From positions 186,001-250,000 of the forward strand of contig NZ_BOOB01000004.1 of the NCBI RefSeq assembly GCF_016863015.1: a DNA stretch of 64,000 nt. The letters run 5' to 3'. Source of the DNA: Microbispora amethystogenes. Lineage in GTDB: Bacteria > Actinomycetota > Actinomycetes > Streptosporangiales > Streptosporangiaceae. This document shows positions 9,098-55,929 of this stretch, piece after piece (the stretch's first letter is position 1; the number at the start of each line of letters is the position of its first letter). The position numbers were made by a program, and so were the translations under genes. The notes beneath the pieces were generated by a model. It did no database searches and was not told the origin of the DNA. It saw only the letters and a list, made by a program, of their open reading frames with translations.

Positions 9098-9187
9098 TCA
9101 GAGCACCACGACTCAAAGCACCGTGACTCAGAGCACCGTGACTCAGAGCACCGTGACTCAGAGCACCGTGACTCAGAGCACCACGAC
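9098..9187 (-). repeat. 15-base tandem repeat x6 carrying the mscR stop codon
   Basis: Six contiguous 15-base units (plus-strand TCAGAGCACCGTGAC and close variants) from 9098 to 9187. The gene-proximal unit contains the last codons and TGA of mscR (9173-9175). The other five lie downstream, each repeating Val-Leu-stop in the same frame. The first and last units share the CACGAC variant, while the inner four are nearly identical. This indicates duplication by slippage or unequal exchange. Confidence 0.95.
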
Positions 9188-10258
9188 GGAGCGCAGCACC
9201 TCCCCGCGGTGCATCTTGCCGAACGCCTCCTCGACCTGGTCGAGGGCGATGGTCTCGGAGACGAACCCGTCGAGGTCGAGCCGTCCCTGCAGATAGAGGT
9301 CGATCAGCATCGGGAAGTCGCGGCTGGGCAGGCAGTCGCCGTACCAGGACGACTTGAGCGCGCCGCCGCGGCCGAACACGTCGAGCAGGGGGAGTTCGAG
9401 GGTCATCTCGGGCGTCGGCACGCCGACGAGCACGACGGTCCCGGCGAGGTCGCGGGCGTAGAAGGCCTGCTTGTACGTCTCCGGGCGGCCCACCGCCTCG
9501 ATCACCACGTCGGCGCCGAAACCACCGGTCAGGTCGCGGATCGCCGCCACGGGGTCGGCCTCGCGCGAGTTGACGGTGTGGGTGGCGCCGAAGCGGCGGG
9601 CCCAGTCGAGCTTGCGGTCGTCGACGTCCACCGCGATGATCGTCCGCGCCCCGGCGAGGTTCGACCCGAGGATCGCCGCGTTGCCCACGCCGCCGCAGCC
9701 GATCACCGCCACCGAGTCGCCGCGGGTGACGCCGCCGGTGTTGATCGCGGCACCGAGGCCCGCCATCACGCCGCAGCCGAGGAGGCCGGCGACGGCCGGG
9801 ATGGCCGCCGCGTCGACCTTCGTGCACTGGCCCGCAGCCACCAGGGTCTTCTCCGCGAACGCCCCGATGCCGAGCGCCGGGCTGAGCGCGGTGCCGTCGG
9901 CCAGGGACATCTTCTGGGCGGCGTTGTGGGTGCTGAAGCAGTACCACGGCCGGCCCCGCAGGCACGCCCGGCACTGCCCGCAGACCGCGCGCCAGTTGAG
10001 GATGACGTAGTCGCCCGGCGCGACCTCGGTCACGCCCTCGCCGACCGCCTCGACGACGCCCGCGGCCTCATGGCCCAGCAGGAACGGGAACTCGTCGTTG
10101 ATGCCGCCCTCGCGGTAGTGGAGATCGGTGTGGCAGACGCCGCAGGCCTGCACGTTCACGACCGCCTCGCCGGGCCCCGGGTCCGGGACGACGACCGTCT
10201 CCAGTGTCACCGCCTCTCCCTTGCCCCGTGCCACCACGCCCTGGACTTCGTACGGCAT
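9173..10258 (-). CDS. mscR: S-(hydroxymethyl)mycothiol dehydrogenase / S-nitrosomycothiol reductase
   Basis: Zinc-dependent class III alcohol dehydrogenase that oxidises the formaldehyde-mycothiol adduct and can reduce S-nitrosomycothiol. The 361-residue protein has the catalytic-zinc segment ACGVCHTD (Cys39), GHEAAGVVE, the structural-zinc cluster [15 protein letters not shown], and the NAD-binding CGGVGNAA stretch. The blocks [18 protein letters not shown] and the ending VLRSVVVL are characteristic of the mycothiol-dependent subfamily. ATG 10258 is chosen because GAGG lies eight bases upstream. The GTG at 10267 falls on that site. It follows the class III cyclase gene by ten bases, so they form an operon. 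Its stop codon lies in the first unit of a 15-base repeat array. Confidence 0.93.
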
Positions 10259-10268
10259 GCCCCGCACC

Positions 10269-11279
10269 TCAACTCTCTCTGCTGGATCTCCTCAGAACAT
10301 ACGGCTCCACGACGCCGAGCCCGCGTGCGGGGCGGCGGCGCAGTTTCACCAGGTCGACGCCGGAGGCCCCGGTGAGCGCCGCGGCCATCTCGCTGTCGGC
10401 GAGGATCGTGCCCGGCCGGGCGATGGCGGTGAGCCGCGCCGCCAGGTTCACCGTCGTACCGAAGACGTCGCCCATCGCGGGCAGCACCGGGCCGTACGCC
10501 AGCCCGACCCGCACGTCCGGCCCCTCGGCGTCCCGCTTGAGCTCGTCGAGCAGGTCGAGCGCGATCAGGGCCGCGGTGCGCGGGCCCGAGGCCGTGAAGA
10601 GCACCTCGTCGCCGAGCGTCTTCACCAGCCGCCCGTCGTGGGCGGCGATCACGTCGGAGGCCCGTGACTCGAACCCCTCGACCAGGTCGGCCAGCGCCAG
10701 TTCGTCCAGTTCCCGGGACACCCGGGTGAAGGCGACGAGGTCGGCGAACCCGACCGCGAGCCTCGGGCGGGTCGGAGAGGCCTCCCCACCCGGCTCGCCG
10801 GGCTCGGCGAGGCTGACCAGCCGGCTCGCGGTCGCGGCGAGCTGCGACCGCCAGACGTGCACCAGCGTCCGCTCGAAGTCCGGCAGCAGGCGGCTGACCG
10901 TGTCCATCACCTGCCGGAGCCGCTCCTCGCCCGGCCGCGCCCCGGGCTCGATCAGCGCGTCCACCATGATCTCCGCCTGCCACTGCGCGAGCCGCGCGGT
11001 GTTGCGGCCGAGCGCGCGGGCCATGCGGATCACGGACCGCTCGTCGAGCATCTCCGCGTCCAGCAGGTCGCGGATGCGGTGCAGGGCCTCCAGATCGGCG
11101 TCCGTGAACGCCACCGCGTCGTCGGCGAACGTCGCGAAGCCCAGGGCCCGCCAGATCCGCGCGGCGAGCTCCTGCGGGATCCCCGCCGCCTCGGCGACCT
11201 GCCGCCGCGTGTACACCGGCGGCGGCCCCAGAAACAGCCGCCGCATGTCGTCGGCGCCGGGCCGCCCGCTTGTCTCCAC
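10269..11279 (-). CDS. Class III adenylate/guanylate cyclase with N-terminal regulatory domain
   Basis: Soluble nucleotide cyclase of 336 residues. Residues 20-115 form a helical domain resembling the autoinhibitory regulatory domain of the Rv1264/Rv2212 family. After a Pro/Gly-rich linker the catalytic domain begins near 172. All residues needed for catalysis are visible: metal-binding Asp180 (GFADL) and Asp224 (LGDEV), substrate-selecting Lys220, and the transition-state pair Asn278/Arg282 in TVNLAAR. Lys220 suggests ATP as substrate. GTG 11279 has GGGAGGGAG just upstream. Its placement upstream of mscR suggests a cAMP signal linked to thiol or formaldehyde stress, but that is only an inference from co-transcription. 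Confidence 0.92.
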
Positions 11280-11390
11280 GTCTCCCTCCCCCGTACGGCA
11301 CGTGGTCCGTGCCGCTTAGGTCGTGCCTGACGAATCATGCCCTGCTGCGCGTGGCCCAGCTCGCGACGGGCAGCATTTGTCAGACGCTCC

Positions 11391-11903
11391 CTACTCCCCG
11401 TCGATTTTCCCGTCGGCGGCATCCTCCACCAGCCGGAACAGCTCGTGCCGTACGCGCTGGATCTGGGGGATGTCCCGGTAGTCGATGTCGCCCTTCTCCG
11501 AGGCCGACTCGACCCGGAGCGTGCCACAGCCCAGGATGCGCTCCAGGAACCGCTGGTCGGAGCTCACGCTGCTGACCTTGGCCAGCGGGATGTCGTCCTC
11601 CGACTTGTTCAGCACCCCGAGGCTGATGGCGAAGCGGTGCGAGGTCAGCGTGTAGGAGGTCGTCACCCAGCGCAGATAGGGGATGAGCGTCCACAGGACC
11701 AGCGCCACGAAGGCGACTACGGCCACCGCACCGCGGGCGAGCCCCGCGTACTCGTAGTCGCCGGGAATGAGGATGAAGGCCGCGACGGCGGCGGCCAGGA
11801 CGACGACGAAGGCGAGAACCGGCAGGATGAGCCGCTTCCAGTGCGGATGGAACGACAGAACGACCCGCTCGCCCTCGGCCAGATAGTGATCCGGGAGACC
11901 CAT
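11391..11903 (-). CDS. PH-domain (bPH2-type) membrane protein
   Basis: A 170-residue protein with two adjacent transmembrane helices (about residues 28-47 and 53-72) followed by a bacterial PH/DUF304-like domain. The motif YTLTSHRFAISLGVLNKSEDDIPLAKVSSV is typical of that domain. Function is unknown; the domain generally sits on the cytoplasmic face. The ATG at 11903 has no clear ribosome site, and CACGAT lies seven bases upstream, so a leaderless start is possible. It is next to birA, the same arrangement as Rv3278c-birA in M. tuberculosis, and is probably part of the conserved backbone. Confidence 0.85.
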   Translation of the reverse strand: MGLPDHYLAEGERVVLSFHPHWKRLILPVLAFVVVLAAAVAAFILIPGDYEYAGLARGAVAVVAFVALVLWTLIPYLRWVTTSYTLTSHRFAISLGVLNKSEDDIPLAKVSSVSSDQRFLERILGCGTLRVESASEKGDIDYRDIPQIQRVRHELFRLVEDAADGKIDGE

Positions 11904-11950
11904 GGCGCAAATCGTGACACGATCCCGGGTCGTTCGCATGCGTTCCCGGG

Positions 11951-12778
11951 CTACGTGATCGACCCAGGGCGGACGTGAACGACGTCGCCGGCGCTGAGCG
12001 AGTGCTCCCCGTCCTCGCCGCGCACGATCAGGTGGCCCGCCGGGTCGATGCCGGCGGCCCGGCCGGTGAGCACCCGCTCGCCGGGCAGTTCGACCCGTAC
12101 GTCCTGGCCCACGGTCGCCGACCAGGCGAGATAGGCCGCGCGCAGGCCCGAGGCGTCCGGGTCGCCGTCGGCGGCCACCCAGTCGCGGTAGTGCGACTCG
12201 ACCTCCCGCAGGATCGCGCGCAGCAGCGGGTCGCGGTCGGTGCAGGCGGCGTTCTCCACCGCGAGGGACGTGGCCCGCTCGACGGGCAGTTCCTCCCGTC
12301 GCAGCGAGACGTTGAGGCCCATGCCGATGACGACCACCCGGTCGACCCGCTCGGCCAGGATGCCGGCCAGTTTGCGCTCCCCGATCATGAGGTCGTTCGG
12401 CCACTTCAGCCGTACGTCCAGCTCGGCGATCCGCCGTACGGCGGAGGCGGCGGCGAGACCCACCAGCAGGGCCAGCCAGCCCTGCCGCGCGAGCGGCACC
12501 TCCGGCCGCAGCAGCATCGAGAACGTCAGCCCCGAGCGCGGCGGCGCGCTCCAGGGGCGGCCGAGCCGTCCCCGGCCCGCGAACTGCGCCTCCGCGACCA
12601 GCACGGCGCCCTCACCGGGGGTGTCCCGCACGGTCTTCGCGAGGTCGGCGTTGGTGGAACCGGTCCGCTCGACCACGCGCACGGACGACCACAGCGATCC
12701 GGGGCGCACCAGCGCCCTGGTCAGCGCGGTCTCGGACAGCGGAGGCCGATCGAGGTCGGCGTACGGCGAGTCGGGCAC
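11951..12778 (-). CDS. birA: Biotin--[acetyl-CoA-carboxylase] ligase
   Basis: Attaches biotin to the BCCP domain of acyl-CoA carboxylases via biotinyl-5'-AMP. The 275-residue protein is the group I type without an N-terminal DNA-binding domain. It has STN near 41, the biotinyl-adenylate loop GRGRLGRPW (68-76) and the catalytic KWPNDL segment (Lys125). A C-terminal SH3-like domain starts near residue 225. Its likely substrate is the carboxylase alpha subunit at 45240-47003, biotinyl Lys551. The GTG at 12778 is preceded six bases upstream by TAGCCT without a Shine-Dalgarno, suggesting leaderless translation. Confidence 0.95.
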   Translation of the reverse strand: MPDSPYADLDRPPLSETALTRALVRPGSLWSSVRVVERTGSTNADLAKTVRDTPGEGAVLVAEAQFAGRGRLGRPWSAPPRSGLTFSMLLRPEVPLARQGWLALLVGLAAASAVRRIAELDVRLKWPNDLMIGERKLAGILAERVDRVVVIGMGLNVSLRREELPVERATSLAVENAACTDRDPLLRAILREVESHYRDWVAADGDPDASGLRAAYLAWSATVGQDVRVELPGERVLTGRAAGIDPAGHLIVRGEDGEHSLSAGDVVHVRPGSIT

Positions 12779-13079
12779 GCGTCCAGGCTATCGGCCGGGG
12801 GCCGCCCCCACCTCCGCGAAGCCACATCGGCGGCCCGCCGCCTCGATAGGCCTCAGCGCGGGGCGCCAGGAGGGTCCCCAGGCGAGCTGAGAGCGGGTCC
12901 GGGCCGGTTTTCCGGGAGGGGTCCCAGGCAGCCTCAGCGCGGGCTCTCGGCGGCCGTGGGGGCATGCTGCCGGAGGCCGCCGCGCCCGTACGACGGACCC
13001 AGGACCCGGGCGTGACCTGCGCGAATCGGGGTTTGCCGGGGAAAGCCCCCGGGCCCAGCGCCGGCTGAGGGAGGCGACC
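12779..13079. other. Intergenic region between birA and glycosyltransferase remnant
   Basis: About 300 bases with no gene I can support. It contains the leaderless birA promoter at its left edge and, at the right edge, a GGGAGG ribosome site in front of the GTG at 13080. CCTCAGCGCGGG occurs twice (near 12850 and 12934), and the GC content is very high. It may hold worn-out coding sequence from the decayed glycosyltransferase locus to its right. Confidence 0.4.
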
Positions 13080-13742
13080 GTGGCGAGAGAGATCCGCGTG
13101 GCCGTGGTCCACGGTCCCGGGCCCGCGCACCGCGACGGCGTCGGCGTCGGCGTCGGCGACTACGCCGAGCGCCTCGTCGTGCGTCAGCTGGTCGAGGCCC
13201 TGCCCACGCTCTGGACCGGCCGTCCCGGGCTGCGCCTGCTGGTCGTGGGCGGCTTCGCGTCCCAGGCGCTGCCGGAGGCGGAGGCGCGGGCCTTCCGCGC
13301 GGAGCTGGAGGCGCTGGCCGCGCGGCACGGCATGGCGGACGCGGTGACGTTCACCGGGCACCTGCCCGCCGCCCGGGTGTCGGAGCTCCTGCACGCGGCC
13401 GACGCGGGCGTGCTGCCCTTCACCGCCGGGGTCACGACCAAGAGCAGCGCACTGCTCACGATGTTGGCGCACGGTCTGCCGGTCGCGGTCACCGTGCCGG
13501 ACGAACCCGACCCGGCGCTTCCGCTCGGGGAGGCCGCCGCCGTGATCCCGGCGCGCCGCGACGCCGCCGCCGTGGCGCGTGCCGTCGGCGCGCTGCTGGA
13601 CGATACGGGCCTGCGGCGGCGGATGGCCGGGGCCGCCCGGCGCCTCGCCGACCACCACTCCTGGTCCCGCGTCGCCGCCGCTCACCGGACCCTGTACGAA
13701 GCCCTGCCCGGCCCCCACCGGGATCTCCCCAGGCAGGGCGAG
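13080..13742 (+). pseudogene. GT4 glycosyltransferase remnant with internal deletion
   Basis: Begins with a good ribosome site and GTG, and REIRVAVVHGPGPAHRDGV looks like a genuine GT4 N-terminus. After about 30 residues it jumps to the C-terminal nucleotide-sugar-binding half (LLVVGGF, HGMADAVTFTGHLP, LLHAADAGVLPF, HGLPVAVT). Roughly 150-200 residues of the acceptor domain are therefore missing. The frame has no stop at the end of the GT4 homology. It runs on as Arg/Pro-rich nonsense through the neighbouring GT9 remnant into fdhD. A functional glycosyltransferase is very unlikely. An internal deletion that also fused two adjacent genes is the simplest reading. Confidence 0.7.
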
Positions 13743-14250
13743 AAGGGGCGCCGTGGTCGTGGGCGGCGACACCGGCCCGCTGCGCCTCGCCGCCGCGTCC
13801 GGCGCGGCCACGGTCGGGCTGTTCGGCCCCACCTGGGCCGGGAGGTACGGCATCGCCGGTTCCACCGTTTTCCCCGACGGCGACATGCCCGGCGATTCCC
13901 GCCTCGCCGTTCCCCCCGGCGGCGTGTTCGGCGATTCCGGCTCCGGCGGCCTTCCCGGCCTTCCCGGGCTCCCCGGCGCGCCCGGCTCGGTGAGCGAGCG
14001 TGCCGACTCCGGGACACGCGCGGTGGACCTTCAGGGGTTGCCGGGGTGCCCGCACCGGAGGCCCGTCGCGATCACCGAGCAGCCGTGCTGGTGGACCGCC
14101 GCGTGCCCGTTGTCCGCGGCGGGGTCCCCGGCGGGCCCTGCCTGCATGGCCGACGTCTCCGTGGCGTCCGTCGCCCGCGCCGGGACCCGCCTCATGACCA
14201 CCCTGTGCGACGGCGGCCCTCCCCCGCGCCGCCCGGCGGAGGACCCCTGA
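13743..14250 (+). pseudogene. GT9 heptosyltransferase-like C-terminal remnant
   Basis: In the +1 frame relative to the GT4 remnant, homology resumes with VVVGGDTGPLRLAAASGA and TVGLFGPTWAGRYG, the nucleotide-sugar site of GT9 heptosyltransferases. It ends with a Cys-containing CWWTAACP ... CMADVSVASV segment and TGA at 14248-14250. Only the last 165 residues or so exist. The N-terminal acceptor domain is gone, and there is no start codon with a ribosome site. A Gly-Leu-Pro-Gly collagen-like repeat has been inserted near 13950. GT4 and GT9 genes are commonly neighbours, so one deletion removing the end of one and the start of the other explains this structure. Confidence 0.65.
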
Positions 14251-14324
14251 GACGAGGCCGGGACGAGGCGTGGCAGGCTGCGTACGGGAAAGAGCGGCAG
14301 CCATGCCGCCAGAGGAGGAAGCAG

Positions 14325-15230
14325 ATGCGAGGGGACGGCGGGGAGGGATTGCCGGCCCGTCCGGGGCCGGTCACGCGGTTCTACGTCCGGAGGGTGTCGG
14401 GATCGGCCGTACGCGACCGGCGGGACGACCTCGCGACCGAGGAACCGCTGGAGATCCGGCTGCTGGCCGCGGGCGGCGACGCCCGCACGGTGGCGATCAC
14501 GATGCGGACGCCGGGCGCGGACTTCGAGCTCGCGGCGGGGTTCCTGCACGGCGAGGGCATCGTCGGCCCCGGCGGCATCGCCGCCATCGGCTACTGCACG
14601 GACGAGGACCTGGACCCCGAGGCGCGCTACAACACCGTGACCGTACGGCTCACCGCGCCCGAACTGCCCGACATGACCTCCGTCCAGCGGAACTTCCTGA
14701 CGTCGAGCGCGTGCGGCGTCTGCGGCACGGCCAGCCTGGACGCCCTGCGTGATCGCTGTGCGCCGCCGGTCGTACGCCCGCCGGTCGGCGTGTCCGCCGC
14801 GACCCTCTACGCCCTGCCGGACCGGCTGCGCGCGGCCCAGGGGGTGTTCGGGAAGACGGGCGGGCTGCACGCCGCCGGGCTGTTCACGCCCAAGGGCGCC
14901 CCCGTGGCCGTACGGGAGGACGTGGGGCGGCACAACGCGGTCGACAAGCTGGTCGGCTGGGCGCTGATGGGCGGCACGCTGCCCCTCGACCGGCACGTCC
15001 TGCTGGTCAGCGGCCGCGTCAGCTACGAGATCATGCAGAAGGCCGCGAGCGCCGGGATCCAGATCGTCTGCGCCGTCTCCGCGCCCTCGTCGCTCGCCGT
15101 CGACCTCGCCCGCGAGTTCGGCGTCACGCTCGTGGGGTTCCTGCGCGACGAGCGCTTCAACGTCTACGCCTGCCCGGAGAGGATCGACGTCGAGCGGGAG
15201 CCGTCGGCTCCGGCCTCTCCCGCGCCGTGA
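14325..15230 (+). CDS. fdhD: Formate dehydrogenase accessory sulfurtransferase FdhD
   Basis: Transfers sulfur from a cysteine desulfurase to the Mo-bis-MGD cofactor, needed to activate formate dehydrogenases and related molybdoenzymes. The 301-residue protein has EEPLEIRL, FELAAGFLHGEG and the mobile-loop cysteines Cys130 and Cys133 in SACGVCG. It also has TGGLHAAG, VREDVGRHNAVDKLVG and SGRVSYEIMQKA. AGAGGAGGAAG ends seven bases before ATG 14325, which fixes the start, although the frame is open upstream through decayed glycosyltransferase sequence. No formate dehydrogenase gene is in the window. The last codon and stop are part of a 33-base tandem duplication. Confidence 0.95.
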   Translation: MRGDGGEGLPARPGPVTRFYVRRVSGSAVRDRRDDLATEEPLEIRLLAAGGDARTVAITMRTPGADFELAAGFLHGEGIVGPGGIAAIGYCTDEDLDPEARYNTVTVRLTAPELPDMTSVQRNFLTSSACGVCGTASLDALRDRCAPPVVRPPVGVSAATLYALPDRLRAAQGVFGKTGGLHAAGLFTPKGAPVAVREDVGRHNAVDKLVGWALMGGTLPLDRHVLLVSGRVSYEIMQKAASAGIQIVCAVSAPSSLAVDLAREFGVTLVGFLRDERFNVYACPERIDVEREPSAPASPAP

Positions 15231-15291
15231 CTCCCCGCCGCCGCGGCCGAAGCCGCGGCGTGACTCCCCGCGGCCGCGGCCGAAGCCGCGG
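15226..15291 (+). repeat. 33-base tandem duplication with fdhD stop and hairpin
   Basis: Two 33-base units (15226-15258 and 15259-15291) differ at one base. Each holds a TGA, in the same frame as the fdhD stop, and a perfect seven-base stem with a CGAA loop (15241-15258 and 15274-15291). The copies therefore give two in-line stop codons and two hairpins, probably acting as tandem terminators. Confidence 0.9.
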
Positions 15292-15303
15292 CGGGCCGAG
15301 CAG

Positions 15304-15335
15304 CGTGCGGGCGCCCGTTCACCTGCGCCCGCACG
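15304..15335. terminator. Bidirectional hairpin between fdhD and ppc
   Basis: Perfect 11-base stem (15304-15314 with 15325-15335) and a ten-base loop, placed between the convergent fdhD and ppc stop codons. There is no U tract, which is normal for high-GC actinomycete terminators. Confidence 0.75.
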
Positions 15336-15348
15336 CCGGACCGGCCGG

Positions 15349-17985
<2,637 letters not shown>

Positions 17986-20218: not shown

Positions 20219-20377
20219 CGGCGGGCCGCGCGGTCAGGGGGCCCGCGTGCGGACCGGTCAGGAGGTCCGCGTACGGAACGGTCAGGGGGCACGTGTGCGA
20301 GGCGGCCGGGAGGCCGGAGGGTCGCGCGGTCAGCGGGCGCGTGTGCGAGGCGGTCAGGAGGCCGACGGGCCGCGCGG

Positions 20378-20386
<9 letters not shown>
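20219..20386 (-). repeat. 24-base degenerate tandem repeat x7 spanning the ATPase stop
   Basis: Seven 24-base units on the minus strand from 20386 to 20219. The first holds the ATPase stop at 20380-20378. Six of the seven units have TGA at the same position and hence in the same frame. Units alternate between GCGCGGCCC-type and CCTCGCACA-type cores, showing that a two-unit block was duplicated. The array ends 16 bases before the permease ATG, so it fills the whole intercistronic space. Confidence 0.85.
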
Positions 20387-21160
<774 letters not shown>

Positions 21161-28478: not shown

Positions 28479-31400
28479 TCAGGCGAGACGTTGGGTTCGG
28501 AGATCAGGTGAGAGGGTGCGGCGCCAGTCGGGCAGCAACTCGTCGATGAGCGCCTCGGTCTCCGGGGCCATCCCGCCGCCGTACGGGTGGGAGGCCGAGC
28601 GGCGCACCAGGCCGTCGACGACCGCCCGCAGCCGGACCGGCTCCCCGGTGGCGTGCGAGGCGCGGAGCAGGTCGCGCCACAACCCCTCGTCGTCGGCCGC
28701 GAGCAGCAACCCGGCGCGGGCCGCCGCCACCGCGCCGTACGGGTCGTCGCGCCGCAGCCTGATCTCGCACAGTTCGTGCGCCGCGTCCGCCACCCAGGCC
28801 GTCACGTCGTACTCCAGCGGGTCGGCGGCCAGCCAGGCGTACCGGTCCGGCGGCCTGCCGCTCAACAGCGGCCCGCGGACCAGCCGCAACGCCCGGTTCA
28901 GCAGGTCCTCCTCGACCTCGCCGGAGGAGGACGTCCCGGCCCATTCGCTCGCCTGCCGCACGAGGTCCTGGAACAACCGCCAGTCCGTACGGATCTCCGG
29001 CCCGAGCCGCAACCGCCCGGACCGGTCGGCGAAGAGGTGGGGACGCCCCTCGGAGTCGCGGCCGAGCCATTCGGCGACCCGGGCGATGGTGGCGTCGCGG
29101 ACCGCGGTCTGCACGCCGCGCGGCCACAGCACCCCGGCGAGGACGACCGGATGCACGCCTTCGGGATGCGTGGCGAGATAGACGACGAGCTCGTGGGCGA
29201 GGGCCGCCCGCCCCTCTTCGAGGGGGTTCACCGGGCTGATCTCGATCGGGCCGAGGACGCGCACCTCGATGGCCGGGGGCTCCTCGCTGAGCCGCTCCGT
29301 CACGGGGGTGAGCGGCTCGCTCTCCTGGCGCATGGCGGTCCGGAACAGGCCGACCACCGCGTCGTAGTGCCGGCGCGGCAGCAGGTGTGCCTCGATGTCC
29401 AGGCCCAGGGCGTCGACGCGGGTCCGTCCGCCGTCGGTGACGTCCCACTTCCAGGTGGCGTGCGGCACCTCACCCGCGATCACGAAGCCGCTCGCCGTAC
29501 GGGTGCCCTTGCCGAGCAGCGCCAACCGGCGCGCCTCGTCCTCGTCGGGCCGGATGGCCGACAGCAGGTAGTGGGGCGTGTAGGCGGGATCGGCCACCCG
29601 GCTGTGCACGCGGCCGGTCAGCACGTCGCCGTCGTGCCGGCCGCGCTCCTCGAACTCGGGCAGCACCTCGGCCAGGCTGCCCGCCGTCCTGATCCGGTCG
29701 GGCGCGAGCAGGGTGAGTTCCTCGCCGAAGCCGACGAGTGTGAGACGCATGTCGTCGGACCAGCGGTTGGTGGCGAGTTCCACGGCGAGCGCGGACAGGG
29801 CGGCGACGGTGTGCGCGCCGGTGATCGCGATGATTCCGTGGGCGGCCTCCAGGTCGACCAGGACCCGGCCGCCCTGACCGGTGCCGAGCGAGACCAGCCC
29901 GGGATAGGGCGCGGGCACCCCGGCGAGCGCGTGCTCGTCGATGCGTCGCCCCTCGTGGGCCGGGAGCCGCCAGACCTGCCCGCCGTCGCAGGCCTCCCAC
30001 GGCTCGGGCGCGTGCTGCTCGGCCGGGTGGATCCACAGGTCGAGACCCCGGCTGGACAGATGCACGGCGTAGATGGTGGGCGGCCGCCTGCCTGAGTCGG
30101 CCAGCAGGCGGCCGAGCAGGCGAAGGCCGATGTCGAGCATCCGGCTGCCGGGTGCGTCGGCGCCGAGGCGGATCGCGACCTCGGCCTCGGCGGCGTCTCC
30201 GCGTGGCCGCGCGATCCGCCGTCCGAACGCCCTGCGCCACAGCTGCTCGCGCCGTTTGCGGCCGAGCAGGGCCAGCAGCCCGGCCGCCGCCAGCGACGAC
30301 GCCGCGAGGTAGTCGGCGAGCACCGGCCCGCCCCGCTGCCCGTCCTCCTCGGCTCCGCCCCCGTCGTGGTCACCGGCCGCCGCGGCGGGAGCGCCGTGGG
30401 CATCGGCCGTCGCGCCGGGTGAGGAGGCGGGCGGGGACACGGACGGGGACACGGACGGGGAGCCGGTGGCGTGGCGGCCGGGTGCCGCGGCCTCGGCGAC
30501 GGGCCGGTTACGCACCGGGGGCTGCCCCTCCTCCCGCGCGGACCCCGCACCGGGCTGCTCGGACGCGTGATCGCCCGGGTCCTCGGCCGCTTGCTCGGTG
30601 GGGCGTGCCTCCCCCACCGCGGCCGGTTGAGCGGTGGTGGTCGTGATCGGCCGTGGCGTCCGCGGCGCCTCGCCCGTCGCGTGAGCGTCCGGCACGGCGG
30701 CCTTGCCCGTGGCGTGCGCGTCCGGCGTAGTGGGCTTCCCTGTGGCGTGGGCATCCGGCGTGCCGGCCTTGCCCGTCGCGTGGGGGTCGGGGGCTGCGGC
30801 ACGGCCGGTGGCGTGGGCGTCCGGGGTGGCGGGCTTGCCCGTGGCGTGCGCGTCCGGCGTGGCGGCGTGACCGCTGTGTCCCGGCTGCTGCGCCGCGGAG
30901 GGGTCCTGCGGCATCGCGGGCGGCGGCAGCACGACCCCCGGCTTGCCCGGCTGGGGGGTCACCCTGCCGGGCTCGTGCCGTACGTCGCCCTGATGCTGAG
31001 CGGTCCCCTCCGGCCGCGGGGTGGCGGGTCCGGCCGTCGGCGGAGTGTGCCGCGCCTTCCCGCCCGGCCCGGCCGGGGCGTCTCCCGAGCCCTGGTCGGG
31101 CAGCGTCGTGTCCCTTTCCCCACCGGCCGAGCCACCTGCTGAGCCACTGGGGGCGCCCGTTCCGGCCGATACGCGCGGATCGGGCGTGGCGTGCGGACGC
31201 TCGTGGGCGCCGCCGGGCGAGCCGGTCGTCGTGTGAGGGGTCGGGCGGGGATGCGCGCGAACGTCGCCGCCCTTGGCGTCCGCTCCCCCGGCGCCGCCGC
31301 CATAACGGGTGGTGCCGTCAAGCTCGGCGGGGGCGTTCCGGTGTTCCTTGAGGATCTCCGGCCGGTCCTCGTCGACGGGCACGACGTGGACGTTCCTGGC

Positions 31401-32369
31401 GTCGTCCGGCATGTCGAGCACCCAGCCGGGGCGGATCAGATCGGCCATGTGGAGGCGGCTGCCGTCCGGCTGCTCCTTGTGCTGGTTCAGCTGATAGATC
31501 TCCGGATAGCGGCGCCCGTCACCCAGGCACTTGTCCGCGATCTCCCAGAGGCTCTCGTGATGACGCCCGTGCGGGGGCTGGACCACGTAGACCTTCTTGA
31601 CCTCCCTGGCGTGCAGGGCCGGCCGGTCCGCTTCTGTCTGGGGCACCGGCGCAGCCAGCACGGCGGCGACCGTCTGCGCCTTGATCACGACGGGCGCGCC
31701 CGCGCGGGCGATGGGCACCACCGCGGCGGTCGCCGTGAAGAGCAGCAGGACGGCGCCGACAAGGCGGTTCGCGAGCGCCTGTGTGCCGCCCGACAACGGC
31801 ACCCGGGCCGGCATCCCGACCCGGCGCAGCCCCGCGTACACCTCGACGATCACGCACAGGAACAGCTGCAGCCAGGCCAGCCACACCAGGAGGACCAGGA
31901 TCGCGATGATCGTTTCCGGGCCGACGTGGTCGGTGAACAGGTCCAGGTTCAGCAGATCACCGCTGATCGGCGGCCCGGCCAGCCGGAGCAGCGCGTACGG
32001 CACGCCGCCCACCAGGGCGACGAGCGCGATGAACGCCCCGATGCCGGCGAACACGTCCTTCGCCCCGCGCCTGGACCGCGGCCGCACCGACCGGTCGTCG
32101 CGCCAGTGCTCCGGCGCGCGCTGCGGTGCCAGCACGGACGGCATGCCCTCGGGACGCGGTCGCGGTCCCCGGCCGGGCTCCTGACGGACGGCCTGATAGG
32201 AGTCCTGGTAGGCGTCCTGGCCGGAAGTCCGGCCCGCACGTCCGGGAACGCCGCGCGGCGGCGCGGCGGCACGGCCCGGCCACTGCGTCTGCCCTGCAGG
32301 GTCACGGGCGGGGTCAGGGGCGGAGTCGCGGGCGGAGTGCCGGCCCTGCGGCGTGGACCTGTCCGTCAT
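28479..32369 (-). CDS. LysM-containing membrane protein with cytoplasmic SARP-like/BTAD domain
   Basis: A 1296-residue protein built as follows: a Pro/Arg-rich N-terminus; three helices (about 106-130, 152-180, 200-225); a LysM peptidoglycan-binding domain (about 260-323) with SLWEIADKCLGDGRRYPEIYQLN; and a long Pro/His/Thr-rich stretch including six 11-residue PDAHATG repeats. A further helix lies near 685-705, followed by a long cytoplasmic part. That ends in a winged helix (VRVLGPIEISPVNP, about 1036) and a BTAD domain (about 1130-1256) as in SARP regulators. ATG 32369 overlaps the upstream tadG-like stop (ATGA). It could link pilus or wall state to gene expression. BTAD domains can also act purely as protein-binding modules. 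Confidence 0.85.
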   Translation of the reverse strand: MTDRSTPQGRHSARDSAPDPARDPAGQTQWPGRAAAPPRGVPGRAGRTSGQDAYQDSYQAVRQEPGRGPRPRPEGMPSVLAPQRAPEHWRDDRSVRPRSRRGAKDVFAGIGAFIALVALVGGVPYALLRLAGPPISGDLLNLDLFTDHVGPETIIAILVLLVWLAWLQLFLCVIVEVYAGLRRVGMPARVPLSGGTQALANRLVGAVLLLFTATAAVVPIARAGAPVVIKAQTVAAVLAAPVPQTEADRPALHAREVKKVYVVQPPHGRHHESLWEIADKCLGDGRRYPEIYQLNQHKEQPDGSRLHMADLIRPGWVLDMPDDARNVHVVPVDEDRPEILKEHRNAPAELDGTTRYGGGAGGADAKGGDVRAHPRPTPHTTTGSPGGAHERPHATPDPRVSAGTGAPSGSAGGSAGGERDTTLPDQGSGDAPAGPGGKARHTPPTAGPATPRPEGTAQHQGDVRHEPGRVTPQPGKPGVVLPPPAMPQDPSAAQQPGHSGHAATPDAHATGKPATPDAHATGRAAAPDPHATGKAGTPDAHATGKPTTPDAHATGKAAVPDAHATGEAPRTPRPITTTTAQPAAVGEARPTEQAAEDPGDHASEQPGAGSAREEGQPPVRNRPVAEAAAPGRHATGSPSVSPSVSPPASSPGATADAHGAPAAAAGDHDGGGAEEDGQRGGPVLADYLAASSLAAAGLLALLGRKRREQLWRRAFGRRIARPRGDAAEAEVAIRLGADAPGSRMLDIGLRLLGRLLADSGRRPPTIYAVHLSSRGLDLWIHPAEQHAPEPWEACDGGQVWRLPAHEGRRIDEHALAGVPAPYPGLVSLGTGQGGRVLVDLEAAHGIIAITGAHTVAALSALAVELATNRWSDDMRLTLVGFGEELTLLAPDRIRTAGSLAEVLPEFEERGRHDGDVLTGRVHSRVADPAYTPHYLLSAIRPDEDEARRLALLGKGTRTASGFVIAGEVPHATWKWDVTDGGRTRVDALGLDIEAHLLPRRHYDAVVGLFRTAMRQESEPLTPVTERLSEEPPAIEVRVLGPIEISPVNPLEEGRAALAHELVVYLATHPEGVHPVVLAGVLWPRGVQTAVRDATIARVAEWLGRDSEGRPHLFADRSGRLRLGPEIRTDWRLFQDLVRQASEWAGTSSSGEVEEDLLNRALRLVRGPLLSGRPPDRYAWLAADPLEYDVTAWVADAAHELCEIRLRRDDPYGAVAAARAGLLLAADDEGLWRDLLRASHATGEPVRLRAVVDGLVRRSASHPYGGGMAPETEALIDELLPDWRRTLSPDLRTQRLA
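30679..30876 (-). repeat. 33-base in-frame repeat x6 in the LysM/BTAD gene
   Basis: Six consecutive 33-base units starting at 30679, 30712, 30745, 30778, 30811 and 30844. Each encodes an 11-residue unit with the core PDAHATG. The array lengthens the extracytoplasmic linker between the LysM domain and the fourth helix. Copy number probably varies between strains. Confidence 0.88.
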
Positions 32370-38268: not shown

Positions 38269-38269
38269 G

Positions 38270-48549: not shown

Positions 48550-48578
48550 CGCCTGACACGGCACCGGATACGACCTCG

Positions 48579-48611: not shown

Positions 48612-48646
48612 GTCGTCGGAGACACCGGGAAGCGATCGGTGGCGGG

Positions 48647-51245: not shown

Positions 51246-51332
51246 GCCGCGGCGGAAACCGGCCGTGCGGCCCGGCTCGCGCCCGCCGAGGGGCCGGCAC
51301 CGGCGAGCGAGACGGGCCGGCCGCCGGGCCGA

Positions 51333-51402
51333 CAGATACCGGCGGTCAGATACCGGCGGTCAGATACCGGCGGTCAGATACCGGCGGTCAGATACCGGCG
51401 GT
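51333..51402 (-). repeat. 14-base perfect tandem repeat x5 containing the lpdA stop
   Basis: Five identical copies of CAGATACCGGCGGT (51333-51402). The lpdA stop (TCA at 51388-51390) lies in the array and the last codons of lpdA are one repeat unit. The unit is not a multiple of three, so successive copies put TGA in different frames, closing all three within three copies. Identity of all copies implies a recent origin. Confidence 0.97.
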
Positions 51403-52788
51403 CAGGGGCGACATGAGGCGGCGGGCCGCCTCGGTGATCGAGCCGGACAGCGACGGGTAGACGGCGAACGTGTGGGCGAGCTGGTCCACGGTCAGGCGGT
51501 GCTGCACGGCCACCGACACGGCGAGGATCAGCTCCGAGGCGCGCGGGGCGACCACGACGCCGCCGAGCACGATGCCGGTGTTGGGGCGGCAGAACAGCTT
51601 CACGAAACCGTCGTGGAAGCCCTGCATCTTGGCCCGGGCGTTGGTGGCGAGGGGCAGCTTGACCACGTTCGCCTCGATCTCGCCTGACTCGATCTGCCGC
51701 TGCGAGATCCCCACCGCGGCGATCTCGGGGTCGGTGAAGATGTTCGAGGCGACGGTGGCCAGGCGGATCGGCTGCACGGCCTCGCCGAGCGCGTGCCAGA
51801 CCGCGATCCTGCCCTGCATGGCGGCGACCGAGGCGAGCATCAGGACGCCCGTGCAGTCGCCCGCGGCGTACACGCCCGGGGCTGAGGTCCTGGAGACCTT
51901 GTCGACCTCGATGAAGCCGCCCCGGTCGAGCCGCACGCCGTTGTCCTCCAGCCCGAGGCCGGAGGTGTTGGGCACCATGCCGACGGTCATCAGGCAGTGG
52001 GTGCCCTCGGCCGTGCGGCCGTCCTCCAGCGTGACGACGACCCCGTGCTCGGTGCGCTTGACCGAGGAGGCCCGCGAGCGGCCCATGACGTTCATGCCGC
52101 GCCGCCGGTAGACCTCTTCGAGCACCTCGGCCGCGTCGGCGTCCTCGTTGGGCATCATCCGGTCGCGGGAGGAGACCAGCGTGACCTCCGACCCCAGCGA
52201 CTGGTAGGCGCCGGCGAACTCCGCGCCGGTGACGCCGGAGCCGACCACGATCAGGTGCCCCGGCAGCTCCTCCAGGTCGTACAGCTGCCGCCAGCTGAGG
52301 ATGCGCTCGCCGTCCGGCTCGGCGCCGGGCAGCACCCGGGGGTGGGCGCCGGTGGCCACGATGACCACGTCGGCCCGGATCGTACGGTCGCCCGCGCGCA
52401 CCACCTGGGGATCGACCAGGCGGCCGCGGGCGCGGATGACCTCGACGCCCTCGGCGGCCAGCCGGGCGGCGATGTCGCCGGACTGCGCCAGCGCGAGTTC
52501 CTTGACGCGCTTGTTCACGTCGATCATGTCCACGGCGACGCCGCCCGCGTCACCGTCGAGGCCGCCGTCGAAGCGGACCCCCACGGACGCCGCGTCGAGA
52601 AGCGCCTGCTTGCGGACGGAGGTGGCGATCAGGGTCTTGGACGGCACGCAGTCGGTGAGAACGCACGCCCCGCCGGGCCCTTCCTCCTCCACGACGGTGA
52701 CCCGCGCCCCCAGTTGCGCGGCGACCAGGGCCGCCTCGTATCCGCCGGGGCCGCCACCGATGATCACGATCCTTGTCACATGCTCCAT
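51388..52788 (-). CDS. lpdA: NAD(P)H-quinone dehydrogenase of the LpdA type
   Basis: A 466-residue flavoprotein disulfide reductase-like enzyme. It has FAD motif IIGGGPGGYEAAL, the redox-pair region Cys42-x4-Cys47 in GACVLTDCVPSK, NAD motif VVGSGVTGAEFA and GVYAAGDCTG. The C-terminal interface, where dihydrolipoamide dehydrogenases have a His-x4-Glu catalytic dyad, reads VYPSLSGSITEAARRL, so the dyad is absent. This is the feature of M. tuberculosis LpdA (Rv3303c), which reduces quinones rather than lipoamide. ATG 52788 was used; a GTG four codons later is possible. Its 3' end is embedded in a 14-base repeat. It is divergent from the cyclotransferase-like gene, as in mycobacteria. Confidence 0.92.
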   Translation of the reverse strand: MEHVTRIVIIGGGPGGYEAALVAAQLGARVTVVEEEGPGGACVLTDCVPSKTLIATSVRKQALLDAASVGVRFDGGLDGDAGGVAVDMIDVNKRVKELALAQSGDIAARLAAEGVEVIRARGRLVDPQVVRAGDRTIRADVVIVATGAHPRVLPGAEPDGERILSWRQLYDLEELPGHLIVVGSGVTGAEFAGAYQSLGSEVTLVSSRDRMMPNEDADAAEVLEEVYRRRGMNVMGRSRASSVKRTEHGVVVTLEDGRTAEGTHCLMTVGMVPNTSGLGLEDNGVRLDRGGFIEVDKVSRTSAPGVYAAGDCTGVLMLASVAAMQGRIAVWHALGEAVQPIRLATVASNIFTDPEIAAVGISQRQIESGEIEANVVKLPLATNARAKMQGFHDGFVKLFCRPNTGIVLGGVVVAPRASELILAVSVAVQHRLTVDQLAHTFAVYPSLSGSITEAARRLMSPLTAGI

Positions 52789-52918
52789 TGTCCCGCATCC
52801 TGGCTACGTATTCCCGGCGAGGGCCGCGTAACGGGTCAACTACTCGTATTTCTCGCGCCACACCCCATGCGCGCGCTACCCGTCCAACTTTGGCGATCTT
52901 GGATTAGGCTTGGGTGCC

Positions 52919-53371
52919 GTGCCTGTTTACGCGGCCTACGGCAGCAACATGGACCCCAAGCAGATGGCGGAGTGGGCGCCCCACTCGCCCATGCGAGGAA
53001 CGGGGTGGCTCCCGGGCTGGCGGCTCACCTTCGGCGGCGAGGACGTCAGCTGGGAGGGTGCTCTCGCCACGATAGTCGAGGATGCCGACGAGCAGGTATT
53101 CGTGGTCCTGTACGACGTGCCGGAGTGGGACGAGCCGTCCCTCGACCGGTGGACGGGCACCGACCTCGGCCTCTACCGCAAGGTGCGGCTCCGCGTCGCG
53201 ACCCTGGAGGGCGACGTGCTCGCCTGGTCGCACGTGCTCGACTCCTACGAGGGCGGCCTGCCCTCGGCGCGCTACATCGGCATCCTCGCCGACGCCGCGG
53301 AGAAGGCGGGGGCTCCCGACGACTACGTCACGGGGCTGCGCAACCGCCCCTGCAAGTCGCTCGGCGACTGA
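52919..53371 (+). CDS. Gamma-glutamylcyclotransferase-fold protein
   Basis: A 150-residue AIG2/GGCT-fold protein. It starts PVYAAYGSNMD, with the substrate-binding YGSN signature, then has GWRLTFGGED, and a later YEGGLPSARYIGILADAAE segment with acidic residues suited to a catalytic role. GGCT enzymes form 5-oxoproline from gamma-glutamyl peptides, but this subfamily has not been characterised. GTG 52919 follows TAGGCT by eight bases, without a Shine-Dalgarno, so translation is probably leaderless. It lies between lpdA and punA, the position of Rv3304 in M. tuberculosis, implying a conserved housekeeping role. Confidence 0.8.
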   Translation: MPVYAAYGSNMDPKQMAEWAPHSPMRGTGWLPGWRLTFGGEDVSWEGALATIVEDADEQVFVVLYDVPEWDEPSLDRWTGTDLGLYRKVRLRVATLEGDVLAWSHVLDSYEGGLPSARYIGILADAAEKAGAPDDYVTGLRNRPCKSLGD

Positions 53372-53478
53372 CCACGCCCACAGCGACGACGTCAGTGCCG
53401 ACCATAGTGCGGACCTGAGCGGCAGAACGGGCAGGTGGAGCCCCGGACTTCGTCATGCCCTTCTGTACGCTCAGCAAA

Positions 53479-54276
53479 GTGACCCCTTATGACCTGGCGG
53501 CCGAGGCCGCGACCACGTTGAGGAACCTCACCGGCATCCCTTCCTTCGACGTCGCCCTCGTCATGGGCTCGGGATGGGTGCCGGCCGCGGACGCGATCGG
53601 CGAGACGGTCGCCGAACTCCCGGTGACGAAGCTGCCCGGGTTCTCCCCGCCTGCGGTCGCCGGGCACGCCGGCACGGTACGCGCGGTGCGGACGGCGGCC
53701 GGGCTCAACGGGCTGATCTTCCTGGGGCGTACGCACCTGTACGAGGGCCGCGGCGTGGACCCGGTGGTGCACGGCGTCCGTACGGCCGTCGCGGCCGGGG
53801 TGCGCACGGTCGTGCTGACCAACGCGGCGGGCGGGCTGCGCCCGGAGACGCAGAAGGTCGGCGACCCCGTGCTCATCGGCGACCACATCAACCTGACTGG
53901 GAGCAACCCGCTCGTCGGCGCGACGTTCGTCGACCTGACCGAGGTGTACTCCCGGCGGCTGCGCGACCTCGCCCGCGAGGTGGACCCCTCGCTGACCGAG
54001 GGCGTGTACGTGGCCTTCCGCGGCCCGACGTACGAGACGCCCGCGGAGATCCGCATGCTGCGCACGCTCGGCGGCGACCTGGTGGGCATGTCGACCGTGC
54101 TGGAGGCGATCGCCGCCCGGGAGGCCGGGGCCGAGGTGCTCGGGATCTCCCTGGTCACCAACCCCGGCGCGGGCCTGGCGGACGAGCCGCTCAACCACGA
54201 GGAGGTCCTGGAGGTCGGCCGCGCCACCGCCGCCCGGATGGGCGTCCTGCTCGCCCAGGTCGTCGACAAGCTTTAG
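53479..54276 (+). CDS. punA: Purine nucleoside phosphorylase
   Basis: Trimeric PNP of 265 residues that splits inosine and guanosine (and deoxy forms) into base and (deoxy)ribose-1-phosphate. Motifs: [53 protein letters not shown] and [14 protein letters not shown] 53479 follows TACGCT by seven bases with no ribosome site, suggesting leaderless translation. The ATG at 53455 would place the box inside the gene. It lies nine bases before the phosphosugar mutase gene, so ribose-1-phosphate made here can be converted at once to ribose-5-phosphate. The pair matches Rv3307-Rv3308. Confidence 0.94.
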
Positions 54277-54285
54277 GGAGCACCT

Positions 54286-55920
54286 GTGACCGATCTCGTA
54301 CGGCTCGCCCGCGAATGGCGTGACCAGGACCCCGACCCCGACACGCGGGCGGAACTCGACGCGATCCTGGACCGGCAGGACCTCGACGCGCTGGAGGACC
54401 GCTTCGGCGCGAAGCTGGAGTTCGGCACGGCGGGCCTGCGCGGCGCGCTGGGAGCCGGGCCGAACCGGATGAACCGGGTGACCGTGATGCGGGCCGCCGC
54501 CGGGCTGGCCCGGGTGCTCGGACCGGGACGCCACGTCGTGATCGGCTACGACGGGCGGCACAAGTCCGACGTGTTCGCCGCCGACACGGCCCGCGTGCTG
54601 ACGGGCGCCGGGCTGCGCGCCTCGGTCATGGCCGGGAAGTGGCCGACGCCGGTGCTGGCGTTCGCCGTGCGCCACCTCGGCGCGGACGCGGGCGTGATGG
54701 TCACCGCCTCGCACAACCCTCCCCAGGACAACGGCTACAAGGTCTACTGGGGCGACGGCGCGCAGATCGTCCCGCCCGTCGACCTGGAGATCTCGGCCGC
54801 CATCGACGCGACCGGCCCGGTGGACGCCCTCCCGCTGGGCGACGACTGGACGACCCTCGGCCACGACGACATCGTCACGCCGTACCTGCGGGCGCTGACG
54901 GCGCTGCCGCTGGGCGACGCCCGCGCGATCTCGGTCGCGTACACGCCGCTGCACGGCGTGGGCGGCGCGACCGTGTCCGAGGCGTTCCGCGCGGCGGGCT
55001 TCGAGGTGCCGGTCATGGTCGGCCGACAGGCCATGCCCGACCCGAACTTCCCCACTGTCACGTTCCCGAATCCGGAGGAGCCGGGCGCGATGGACCTCGC
55101 GCTCGAACTCGCCGCCGCCACCCGCGCCGACCTCGTGCTGGCCAACGACCCGGACGCCGACCGGTGCGCGGTCGGCACGCCGCTGCCCGGCGGCGGCTAC
55201 CGCATGCTGACCGGCGACGAGGTCGGCGGGCTGCTCGCCGAGCACGTGCTGCGGCACACCTCGGGCGGCGACCGGCTGGTCGCCACGTCGATCGTGTCGT
55301 CGTCGCTGCTCGCGAAGATCGCCGCCGACCACGGTGTGCGGCACGCCGAGACGCTGACGGGCTTCAAGTGGATCATGAAGTCGGGGCCGGGGCTCGTCTT
55401 CGGATACGAGGAGGCGCTGGGCTACAGCGTCGGGTCGGACGCCGGCCTGCCGGTCCACGACAAGGACGGCGTCGGGGCCGCCCTCACCGTCGCCGCGATG
55501 GCCGCCGAGGCCCGGCGGGAGGGCCGGTCGCTGCTCGACCTGCTCGACGAGCAGGCCCGCCGGTACGGCCTGCACGCGACCACCCAGTTGTCGGTCCGGG
55601 TCGAGGACCTGTCGCTGATCGCGAAGGCGATGGAGCGCCTGCGGACCAACCCGCCGGCACGGCTGGCCGGCCGGGTGGTGGAGTCGGCCGAGGACCTGTC
55701 GCAGGGGGCGGCCGGGCTGCCGCCGACCGACGGCCTGCGGTACCGCCTCTCCGGCGACGCCCGGGTCATCGTGCGGCCCAGCGGAACCGAGCCCAAGCTC
55801 AAGTGCTACCTGGAGGTCGTCGTACCGGTCGGGGACGACGACGTCACGGCGGCCAGGGCGCGGGCCGCCGCGGACCTGGAGGCCCTGAAGCGGGACCTCG
55901 CCACCGCCCTCGCCCTCTGA
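54286..55920 (+). CDS. pmmB: Phospho-sugar mutase (phosphopentomutase/phosphomannomutase type)
   Basis: A 544-residue alpha-D-phosphohexomutase-family enzyme. It has the active-site serine in VTASHNPPQDNGYK (Ser142), the metal site NDPDADRC, the sugar-binding FGYEEALGYSVG, and the phosphate-binding RPSGTEPKLK near the end. In operon with PNP it probably interconverts ribose-1- and ribose-5-phosphate, though family members also act on hexose phosphates. GTG 54286 follows TAGGGAGCACCT. Its final codons GCCCTCTGA are repeated once directly downstream. Confidence 0.9.
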   Translation: MTDLVRLAREWRDQDPDPDTRAELDAILDRQDLDALEDRFGAKLEFGTAGLRGALGAGPNRMNRVTVMRAAAGLARVLGPGRHVVIGYDGRHKSDVFAADTARVLTGAGLRASVMAGKWPTPVLAFAVRHLGADAGVMVTASHNPPQDNGYKVYWGDGAQIVPPVDLEISAAIDATGPVDALPLGDDWTTLGHDDIVTPYLRALTALPLGDARAISVAYTPLHGVGGATVSEAFRAAGFEVPVMVGRQAMPDPNFPTVTFPNPEEPGAMDLALELAAATRADLVLANDPDADRCAVGTPLPGGGYRMLTGDEVGGLLAEHVLRHTSGGDRLVATSIVSSSLLAKIAADHGVRHAETLTGFKWIMKSGPGLVFGYEEALGYSVGSDAGLPVHDKDGVGAALTVAAMAAEARREGRSLLDLLDEQARRYGLHATTQLSVRVEDLSLIAKAMERLRTNPPARLAGRVVESAEDLSQGAAGLPPTDGLRYRLSGDARVIVRPSGTEPKLKCYLEVVVPVGDDDVTAARARAAADLEALKRDLATALAL

Positions 55921-55929
55921 GCCCTCTGA
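55912..55929 (+). repeat. 9-base tandem duplication with the pmmB stop
   Basis: GCCCTCTGA at 55912-55920, containing the pmmB stop, is repeated exactly at 55921-55929. The second TGA is in the same frame. It is the smallest of the stop-spanning repeats in the window. Confidence 0.9.

What the first reader, a model, noticed from the sequence alone, without database searches (positions are those of the whole stretch)
9098..55929. Recurrent tandem repeats that carry the stop codon past the gene end
At five genes in 64 kb (mscR 15 bp x6, fdhD 33 bp x2, ABC ATPase 24 bp x7, lpdA 14 bp x5, pmmB 9 bp x2) a short tandem array begins in the last codons and repeats the stop codon downstream. In four cases the unit is a multiple of three, so the extra stops are all in frame. 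Internal repeats elsewhere also preserve frame. Chance placement of five arrays on stop codons seems unlikely. The arrays could be slippage products tolerated only where the first stop protects the protein, or back-up stops against readthrough and a trigger for ribosome or RNA-end effects. I know of no description of this as a general pattern.
Basis: partly seen in the sequence, partly recalled or inferred. Interest (0 to 1): 0.72.

Follow-up and report, generated by a model that had tools for sequence, protein, structure and literature searches.

The report
Tandem repeats spilling over gene ends
In this soil actinobacterium short DNA stretches are often copied head-to-tail in the loosely constrained gaps after genes, and some of these copies start in the last few codons because a repeat that begins there leaves the protein unchanged; it looks like ordinary tolerated copying error rather than a dedicated stop-signal device.

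Summary
The arrays are real at mscR, fdhD, the ABC ATPase and the lpdA-like gene (TRF score above 130 each). The pmmB case is a weak two-copy 9-mer. In 1.29 Mb of this genome 35 of 1008 called stops lie in an array; the window has 4 of 50 (P 0.09). The pattern recurs, but stops are not special: over six genomes of the genus, stops facing convergent spacers are covered less often (19 of 266, 7.1%) than random triplets inside those spacers (12.4%); same-strand 17 of 484 (3.5%) against 5.0%. None of the 9 stop-crossing arrays on the window's contig is shared with relative G013. Units are multiples of three in 23 of 50 stop-crossing arrays against 475 of 511 coding ones. Extra in-frame stops are not enriched. 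Best reading: recurrent tandem duplication, tolerated where the first stop protects the protein. Back-up stops are not supported. The underlying pattern is array enrichment in 3' spacers, above all convergent ones.

The parts
9098..9182 (-). 15-bp tandem array, 5.7 copies, starting in the last codons of mscR (stop 9173-9175); copy 1 is the conserved gene end
   Evidence: TRF; six in-frame TGA; G013 has two copies only, G014 one (read)
9173..10267 (-). mscR, S-(hydroxymethyl)mycothiol dehydrogenase
   Evidence: NCBIfam TIGR03451, 690.7 bits, cut-off 512.9
15220..15293 (+). 33-bp array, 2.2 copies, that duplicates the fdhD stop (15228-15230) together with a GC-rich hairpin
   Evidence: TRF; fold z -2.2; one copy of the hairpin sequence in G014 (read)
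14394..15230 (+). fdhD, formate dehydrogenase accessory sulfurtransferase (extent as called)
   Evidence: NCBIfam NF001943, 296.4 bits, cut-off 269, on the longer ORF 13080-15230; gene
20231..20386 (-). degenerate 24/48-bp array between the ABC ATPase (stop 20378-20380) and the next gene on the same strand
   Evidence: TRF; 48-bp x 2.4 array in G014, no array in G013
20378..21160 (-). ABC transporter ATP-binding protein (DrrA-like, below the curated cut-off)
   Evidence: NCBIfam TIGR01188, 211.2 bits, cut-off 312.45
51333..51405 (-). 14-bp array, 5.2 copies, over the stop of the lpdA-like gene (51388-51390), in a convergent spacer
   Evidence: TRF; no array in G013, a different 16-bp array in G014
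   Evidence: NF005883, 751.7 bits, cut-off 479
55912..55930 (+). two-copy 9-mer over the stop (55918-55920) of a phosphohexomutase-like gene (pmmB); weak
   Evidence: TRF score 38

Best explanation
The arrays are products of recurrent short tandem duplication, most likely replication slippage or unequal exchange at short pre-existing direct repeats (inferred). They survive mainly in the weakly constrained spacers after genes. A duplication that starts up to about one unit before a stop codon leaves the protein unchanged, because the first copy keeps the original stop, so such arrays are tolerated like those wholly in the spacer. The extra stops are passengers of the copied segment. Shown here: the positional statistics, the loss of the 3n rule at stops, the turnover between close relatives, the different units at the same stop in two species, and in one case (lpdA) a 14-bp self-similarity at the unexpanded gene end of eight relatives that equals the unit expanded here. 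Inferred: the slippage mechanism itself, and neutrality.
For: Array coverage in the own genome rises from coding (about 2% of the last 60 coding bases) through the stop (4.1%) to the spacer (9-10% at +15 to +60), with no peak at the stop (1008 genes). Six genomes: stops in arrays 19 of 266 (7.1%, convergent) against 12.4% of random triplets in those spacers; 17 of 484 (3.5%, same-strand) against 5.0%; starts 3 of 484 and 1 of 404; coding 1.5%. Placement with arrays allowed to start up to one unit before the stop: 26.0 expected, 28 observed (46 arrays, convergent, P 0.29); 14.0 expected, 18 observed (81 arrays, same-strand, P 0.11). In 46 of 52 stop-crossing array/gene pairs the coding part is no longer than one unit plus 2 bases. 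Units are multiples of three in 475 of 511 coding arrays but 23 of 50 stop-crossing ones (P 1.3e-15). Turnover: of 143 comparable gene ends between contig C4 and G013, 9 cross only here, 3 only in G013, 0 in both. Convergent spacers are the least conserved (mean identity with G013 0.53, n=13; same-strand 0.80, n=53; divergent 0.89, n=13; leaving out spacers with an own array 0.68, n=7; 0.82, n=46; 0.89, n=12). lpdA: 14-bp unit here, 16-bp unit in G014; eight relatives with the same gene end and no array over it (L097, L098, L102 to L107) match themselves at period 14 in 8 to 10 of 14 bases. The units are not one family: 1 of 561 pairs of own stop-crossing arrays is similar.
Against: Array 5' edges are somewhat concentrated near the stop: per 1000 gene-bases 2.6 at -15 to -10, 3.8 at -10 to -5, 1.3 at -5 to 0, 3.2 at 0 to +5, 0.8 at +5 to +10, 2.5 at +10 to +20, 1.2 at +40 to +60, although spacer length also limits where an array can start. 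In G013 the rise from coding to spacer is weak: 2.5-3.5% coverage at -150 to -30, 2.2% at the stop, at most 4.7% beyond. With G014 two of four own stop-crossers also cross there, so some sharing exists. G013 and G014 show less period-14 self-match at lpdA (6 of 14) and four relatives with another gene end 4 to 5. Slippage was not observed, no strains of one species were available, and a mutational hot spot in convergent spacers is not excluded.
Confidence: 0.85

Rival explanations
1. Back-up stops: the arrays are selected because repeated in-frame stops catch ribosomes that read through the leaky TGA.
For: At mscR, fdhD, the ABC gene and pmmB the extra stops are in frame.
Against: lpdA is not in one frame; unit lengths are 3n no more often than in 3' spacers (23 of 50 against 30 of 62; convergent spacers alone 4 of 19, same-strand ones 26 of 43, so the comparison depends on which spacers are taken); in array-free own genes in-frame stops in the first 20 triplets are fewer than in the other frames (density 0.0151 against 0.0177 and 0.0212, 438 genes, P 0.012), and with array genes included there is no difference (521 genes, P 0.23); a published survey finds no evidence of selection for additional stops in eubacteria (PMC6764699, abstract).
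Confidence: 0.04
2. RNA-end elements: the arrays act as terminators, mRNA stabilisers or duplexes between convergent transcripts.
For: The fdhD array holds two copies of a strong hairpin (z -2.2); overlapping convergent transcripts (cutoRNAs) are common in Streptomyces (PMC3765725, abstract and passages).
Against: mscR, ABC and lpdA arrays fold only moderately (z -1.1, -0.7, -1.8); most relatives compared have no array over the same stop; at mscR an inverted repeat follows the stop in most relatives without an array (read by eye; folded in one relative, z -3.0). The stretch just after the own mscR array did not fold unusually (z +0.9), but it cut that inverted repeat.
Confidence: 0.06
3. A mutational hot spot: convergent transcription or collision at 3' ends makes tandem duplications form faster there, and tolerance is only part of the story.
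For: Convergent spacers have the highest array coverage (11.9% against 2.6% in divergent ones, own genome), also in another family of the class (G036, arrays in 10 of 22 convergent and 5 of 24 divergent spacers).
Against: Convergent spacers are also the least conserved, so relaxed constraint predicts the same ranking; G048, same class, has none (0 of 9 convergent).
Confidence: 0.15
4. Assembly artefact.
For: G000 is a draft of 167 contigs.
Against: Arrays of 73-156 bp are short enough for paired reads (recalled); the same kind occurs in single-contig genomes: G009 6 of 97 stops, G013 4 of 212, G036 12 of 164 (contig counts).
Confidence: 0.02

Closest known systems
Variable-number tandem repeats (bacterial minisatellites)
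   Same: Head-to-tail copies of about 10-50 bp, copy number differing between close relatives, 3n units inside genes, other lengths outside
   Different: Here the subset that straddles stop codons is singled out; strain-level variation not tested
Tandem repeats of Borg elements (PMC9879509, passages read)
   Same: Rapidly evolving, independently arising arrays; 3n inside ORFs; [quoted passage not shown] 4 legend); slippage discussed
   Different: Borg repeats are reported as perfect and A-enriched; these are GC-rich and partly degenerate, in a bacterial chromosome
Additional (tandem) stop codons (PMC6764699, abstract and section list; PMC1088959, search listing only)
   Same: In-frame stops after the primary stop
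   Different: Maintained by selection in yeasts according to the listing; no evidence for selection in eubacteria; here a by-product of duplication
MIRU elements of mycobacteria (recalled; only search listings seen)
   Same: Repeats placed at stop codons between genes (recalled)
   Different: MIRUs are one dispersed family (recalled); these units are almost all unrelated to each other (1 of 561 pairs similar)

Membership tests
VNTR / minisatellite | head-to-tail copies with high identity | tested here: met
   met for mscR, fdhD and lpdA; the ABC array is degenerate (24-bp unit 67%, 48-bp unit 76%)
VNTR / minisatellite | copy number varies between strains of a species | not testable with these tools
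   one genome per species held; between close species it varies
Fail-safe additional stop codons | excess of in-frame downstream stops over other frames | tested here: not met
   depleted in array-free genes, no difference when array genes are included
Fail-safe additional stop codons | unit length kept at multiples of three | tested here: not met
   23 of 50 against 30 of 62 in convergent and same-strand spacers
Intrinsic terminator | GC-rich hairpin followed by a U tract | tested here: inconclusive
   the fdhD array duplicates a hairpin with no U tract that I could see; no terminator-like pattern in 8700-9300, the only stretch scanned with that tool
Known RNA family (Rfam) | covariance-model match | tested here: not met
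   no match at gathering score in the window
MIRU-like dispersed repeat family | same unit at several loci | tested here: not met
   among 34 own stop-crossing arrays 1 of 561 pairs is similar at E 1e-3 (lpdA and an array on C46, 88% over 26 bases; unit-shuffled control 0 in 20 runs); the same pair appears (80% over 45 bases)

The most novel reading that the evidence does not exclude
Gene ends, above all convergent ones, are mutational hot spots for short tandem duplication in some high-GC actinomycetes, driven by transcription or replication events at 3' ends, so that 3' spacers and stop regions of orthologous genes are rebuilt independently in each species.
Probability: 0.15. Interest if true: 0.5.

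Novelty: new member of a known kind. Interest (0 to 1): 0.27.

Why it matters
It shows how coding constraint ends: once a duplication is shielded by the first stop, the multiple-of-three rule breaks down (475 of 511 coding arrays against 23 of 50 stop-crossing ones). It also warns against reading repeated stop codons as a designed signal. The strong enrichment of arrays in convergent spacers, present in this genus and in one other family sampled but absent in a third, could be used to ask whether 3' ends differ in mutation rate or only in constraint.

Tried and rejected
Back-up stops: rejected. RNA structure as a shared function: three of the four arrays folded are not unusual. An Rfam family: none. 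One dispersed repeat family: 1 of 561 pairs similar. Naming the organism through the array sequence: no match (the tool says records of this genome may be left out). Streptomyces as host, my first guess, was wrong: the nearest named relatives are mostly Microbispora. The Streptomyces plasmid SCP1 as an annotated control: record not held under the accession I tried. Papers: six searches for arrays at stop codons or in intergenic and convergent regions and for tandem stops, one on NucS and indels, one for repeats that include the stop codon, one on cutoRNAs. In these listings, which show only the best-ranked papers, I saw no genome-wide account of stop-spanning arrays in bacteria; [quoted passage not shown]

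Limits: gene calls come from my own simple codon-model caller, not a curated annotation; uncalled genes may inflate same-strand 'spacer' arrays with 3n units. The own-genome sample is 1.286 Mb of 8.13 Mb (13 contigs, chosen by number plus C46, not at random); the relatives' stretches were chosen for synteny with the window. Stops overlapped by another gene were left out of the coverage profile, and gene ends without a called counterpart out of the turnover table (217 genes on C4, 150 with an aligned end in G013, 143 counted). The E. coli control is 100 kb with longest-ORF calls (0 of 84 stops). One search used TRF score 38 or more; searches used 50 or more (some also 80 and 110).
Full report
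What is there. The window (GC 0.73) lies in a draft genome of 8.13 Mb and 167 contigs. The nearest named relatives of its lpdA-like protein are mostly Microbispora (94-96% identity; one Planotetraspora at 94%), and contig G007:C36 of the same genus has the length of a Microbispora rosea contig, so the host is most likely a Microbispora (Streptosporangiaceae; lineage). Four of the five arrays are solid: mscR 15 bp x 5.7, fdhD 33 bp x 2.2, ABC ATPase 24/48 bp degenerate, lpdA-like 14 bp x 5.2 with 100% matches. The fifth, pmmB, is a two-copy 9-mer with score 38.

Is the stop codon special? I called genes in 1.286 Mb of this genome (1008 genes) and in stretches of five relatives of the same genus (531 genes) with a simple codon-model caller and ran TRF on all of it. 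In the own genome 35 of 1008 stops lie inside an array; in the relatives G013 4 of 212, G014 4 of 65, G009 6 of 97, G010 2 of 74, G007 1 of 83; in the window 4 of 50, not significantly above the rest (P 0.09). In the own genome coverage climbs from coding through the stop into the spacer with no peak at the stop; in G013 the rise is weak, with the stop (2.2%) below the coding stretch before it (2.5-3.5% at -150 to -30). Over the six genomes, for spacers of 40-400 bases, stops facing convergent spacers are covered in 19 of 266 cases (7.1%), random triplets inside those spacers in 12.4%; same-strand spacers give 17 of 484 (3.5%) against 5.0%; start codons 3 of 484 and 1 of 404; coding triplets 1.5%. 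So a stop codon lies between coding and spacer, as expected for a boundary.

A placement model drops each array at random into its own spacer and lets it start up to one unit before a stop, or as far as it was observed. It predicts 26.0 stop crossings in convergent spacers (28 observed, 46 arrays, P 0.29) and 14.0 in same-strand spacers (18 observed, 81 arrays, P 0.11). If only half a unit is allowed, the predictions fall to 22.7 (P 0.03) and 9.0 (P 0.0005). Four arrays in same-strand spacers cross a start codon, which the model allows only because they were observed. Array 5' edges are mildly concentrated between -15 and +20. In 46 of 52 crossings the coding part is no longer than one unit plus 2 bases.

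The frame. Units are multiples of three in 475 of 511 wholly coding arrays (258 of 284 own, 217 of 227 relatives), but in only 23 of 50 stop-crossing ones, much like the 30 of 62 inside convergent and same-strand spacers of 15-300 bases (convergent alone 4 of 19, same-strand 26 of 43, where uncalled genes may add 3n units). There is thus no clear preference for in-frame repeated stops. In array-free own genes with at least 62 bases of spacer, in-frame stops in the first 20 triplets are rarer than in the other frames (0.0151 against 0.0177 and 0.0212, 438 genes, 83 left out, P 0.012; six genomes 649 genes, 117 left out, P 0.006); with array genes included there is no difference (P 0.23 and 0.16). 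This agrees with a survey of eubacteria (PMC6764699, abstract).

Turnover. On the 270 kb of contig C4 examined, 143 gene ends could be compared with G013, the relative with the most similar mscR and lpdA proteins among the 15 genomes of the genus searched. Nine cross a stop here only, three in G013 only, none in both. Fewer ends could be compared with the others (here only / there only / both): G014 2, 1, 2 of 57; G009 4, 4, 0 of 48; G010 4, 0, 0 of 37; G007 4, 0, 0 of 34. At mscR G013 has two copies of the unit (not called as an array) and then a different 16-bp array starting 14 bases from the stop; G014 has one copy. With a laxer score, 5 of the 14 mscR tails compared hold some array in or just after the gene end, with units of 15, 16, 14, 17 and 13 bases. 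At the ABC gene G014 has a 48-bp x 2.4 array and G013 none; at lpdA G014 has a 16-bp array with another unit. Among 80 named family loci of lpdA, 2 have an array over the called stop, with units of 36 bases (L202) and 21 bases (L227, where the called stop lies 170 bases past the matched protein), and 12 have one downstream only, several of which look like coding repeats of the neighbouring gene (the last is my reading). Eight relatives with the same gene end and no array over it (L097, L098, L102 to L107) match themselves at period 14 in 8 to 10 of 14 bases; G013 and G014 match in 6, and four relatives with a different end in 4 to 5. This self-similarity is a plausible seed for the unit that expanded here.

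Not one family. Of 561 pairs among 34 own stop-crossing arrays, one is similar (lpdA and an array on C46, 88% over 26 bases); unit-shuffled controls gave none in 20 runs.

Where arrays live. In the own genome arrays cover 11.9% of the bases of convergent spacers (22 of 93 spacers hit), 5.2% of same-strand (53 of 346), 2.6% of divergent (12 of 131) and 1.5% of coding bases; spacers taken alone give 9.6%, 4.9% and 2.6% against 0.6%, 0.2% and 0.1% in dinucleotide shuffles. G013 shows the same order more weakly, the other four relatives more strongly. Convergent spacers are also the least conserved (mean identity with G013 0.53, n=13; same-strand 0.80, n=53; divergent 0.89, n=13; without spacers that hold an own array 0.68, 0.82 and 0.89), so weak constraint explains the order without a special mechanism, though a mutational contribution is not excluded. 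Outside the genus, one genome of another family of the class (G036) has 12 of 164 stops in arrays and arrays in 10 of 22 convergent spacers; another (G048) 0 of 175 and 0 of 9; 100 kb of E. coli gives 0 of 84. Loss of NucS mismatch repair did not considerably affect the indel rate in Streptomyces (PMC11109965, passages), so this repair route may not police such duplications (inference; the indels reported there are of 1-4 bases).

RNA effects. The mscR, ABC (142 of its bases folded) and lpdA arrays fold only moderately (z -1.1, -0.7, -1.8); the fdhD array, which duplicates a hairpin, reaches z -2.2. At mscR an inverted repeat follows the stop in most relatives without an array (by eye; one folded, z -3.0), so the array seems to be an insertion ahead of it; the own stretch folded after the array (z +0.9) cut that repeat. 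No Rfam family matches the window at gathering score.

Verdict. [quoted passage not shown]

Noticed in passing
window 51388-52788: The gene called lpdA matches the NCBIfam model NAD(P)H-quinone dehydrogenase above cut-off and the dihydrolipoyl dehydrogenase model below it, so the name lpdA is doubtful.
   Followed up: partly
window 15220-15293: The fdhD array copies the stop together with a GC-rich hairpin, giving two stop-plus-hairpin modules in a row.
   Followed up: partly
window 58822-59007: A 42/84-bp array of high score (288) between called genes; not examined.
   Followed up: no
window 30667-30866: A 33/99-bp array inside the long called gene 28479-32144 on the minus strand; units are multiples of three.
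   Followed up: no
L064 (G013 mscR): A second, different 16-bp array sits in the same 3' spacer in the close relative.
   Followed up: partly
G048 C1:200001-400000 (L172-L181): A same-class genome with GC 0.674 has no array at 175 stops or in 84 short spacers, in contrast to G036 with GC 0.721.
   Followed up: no
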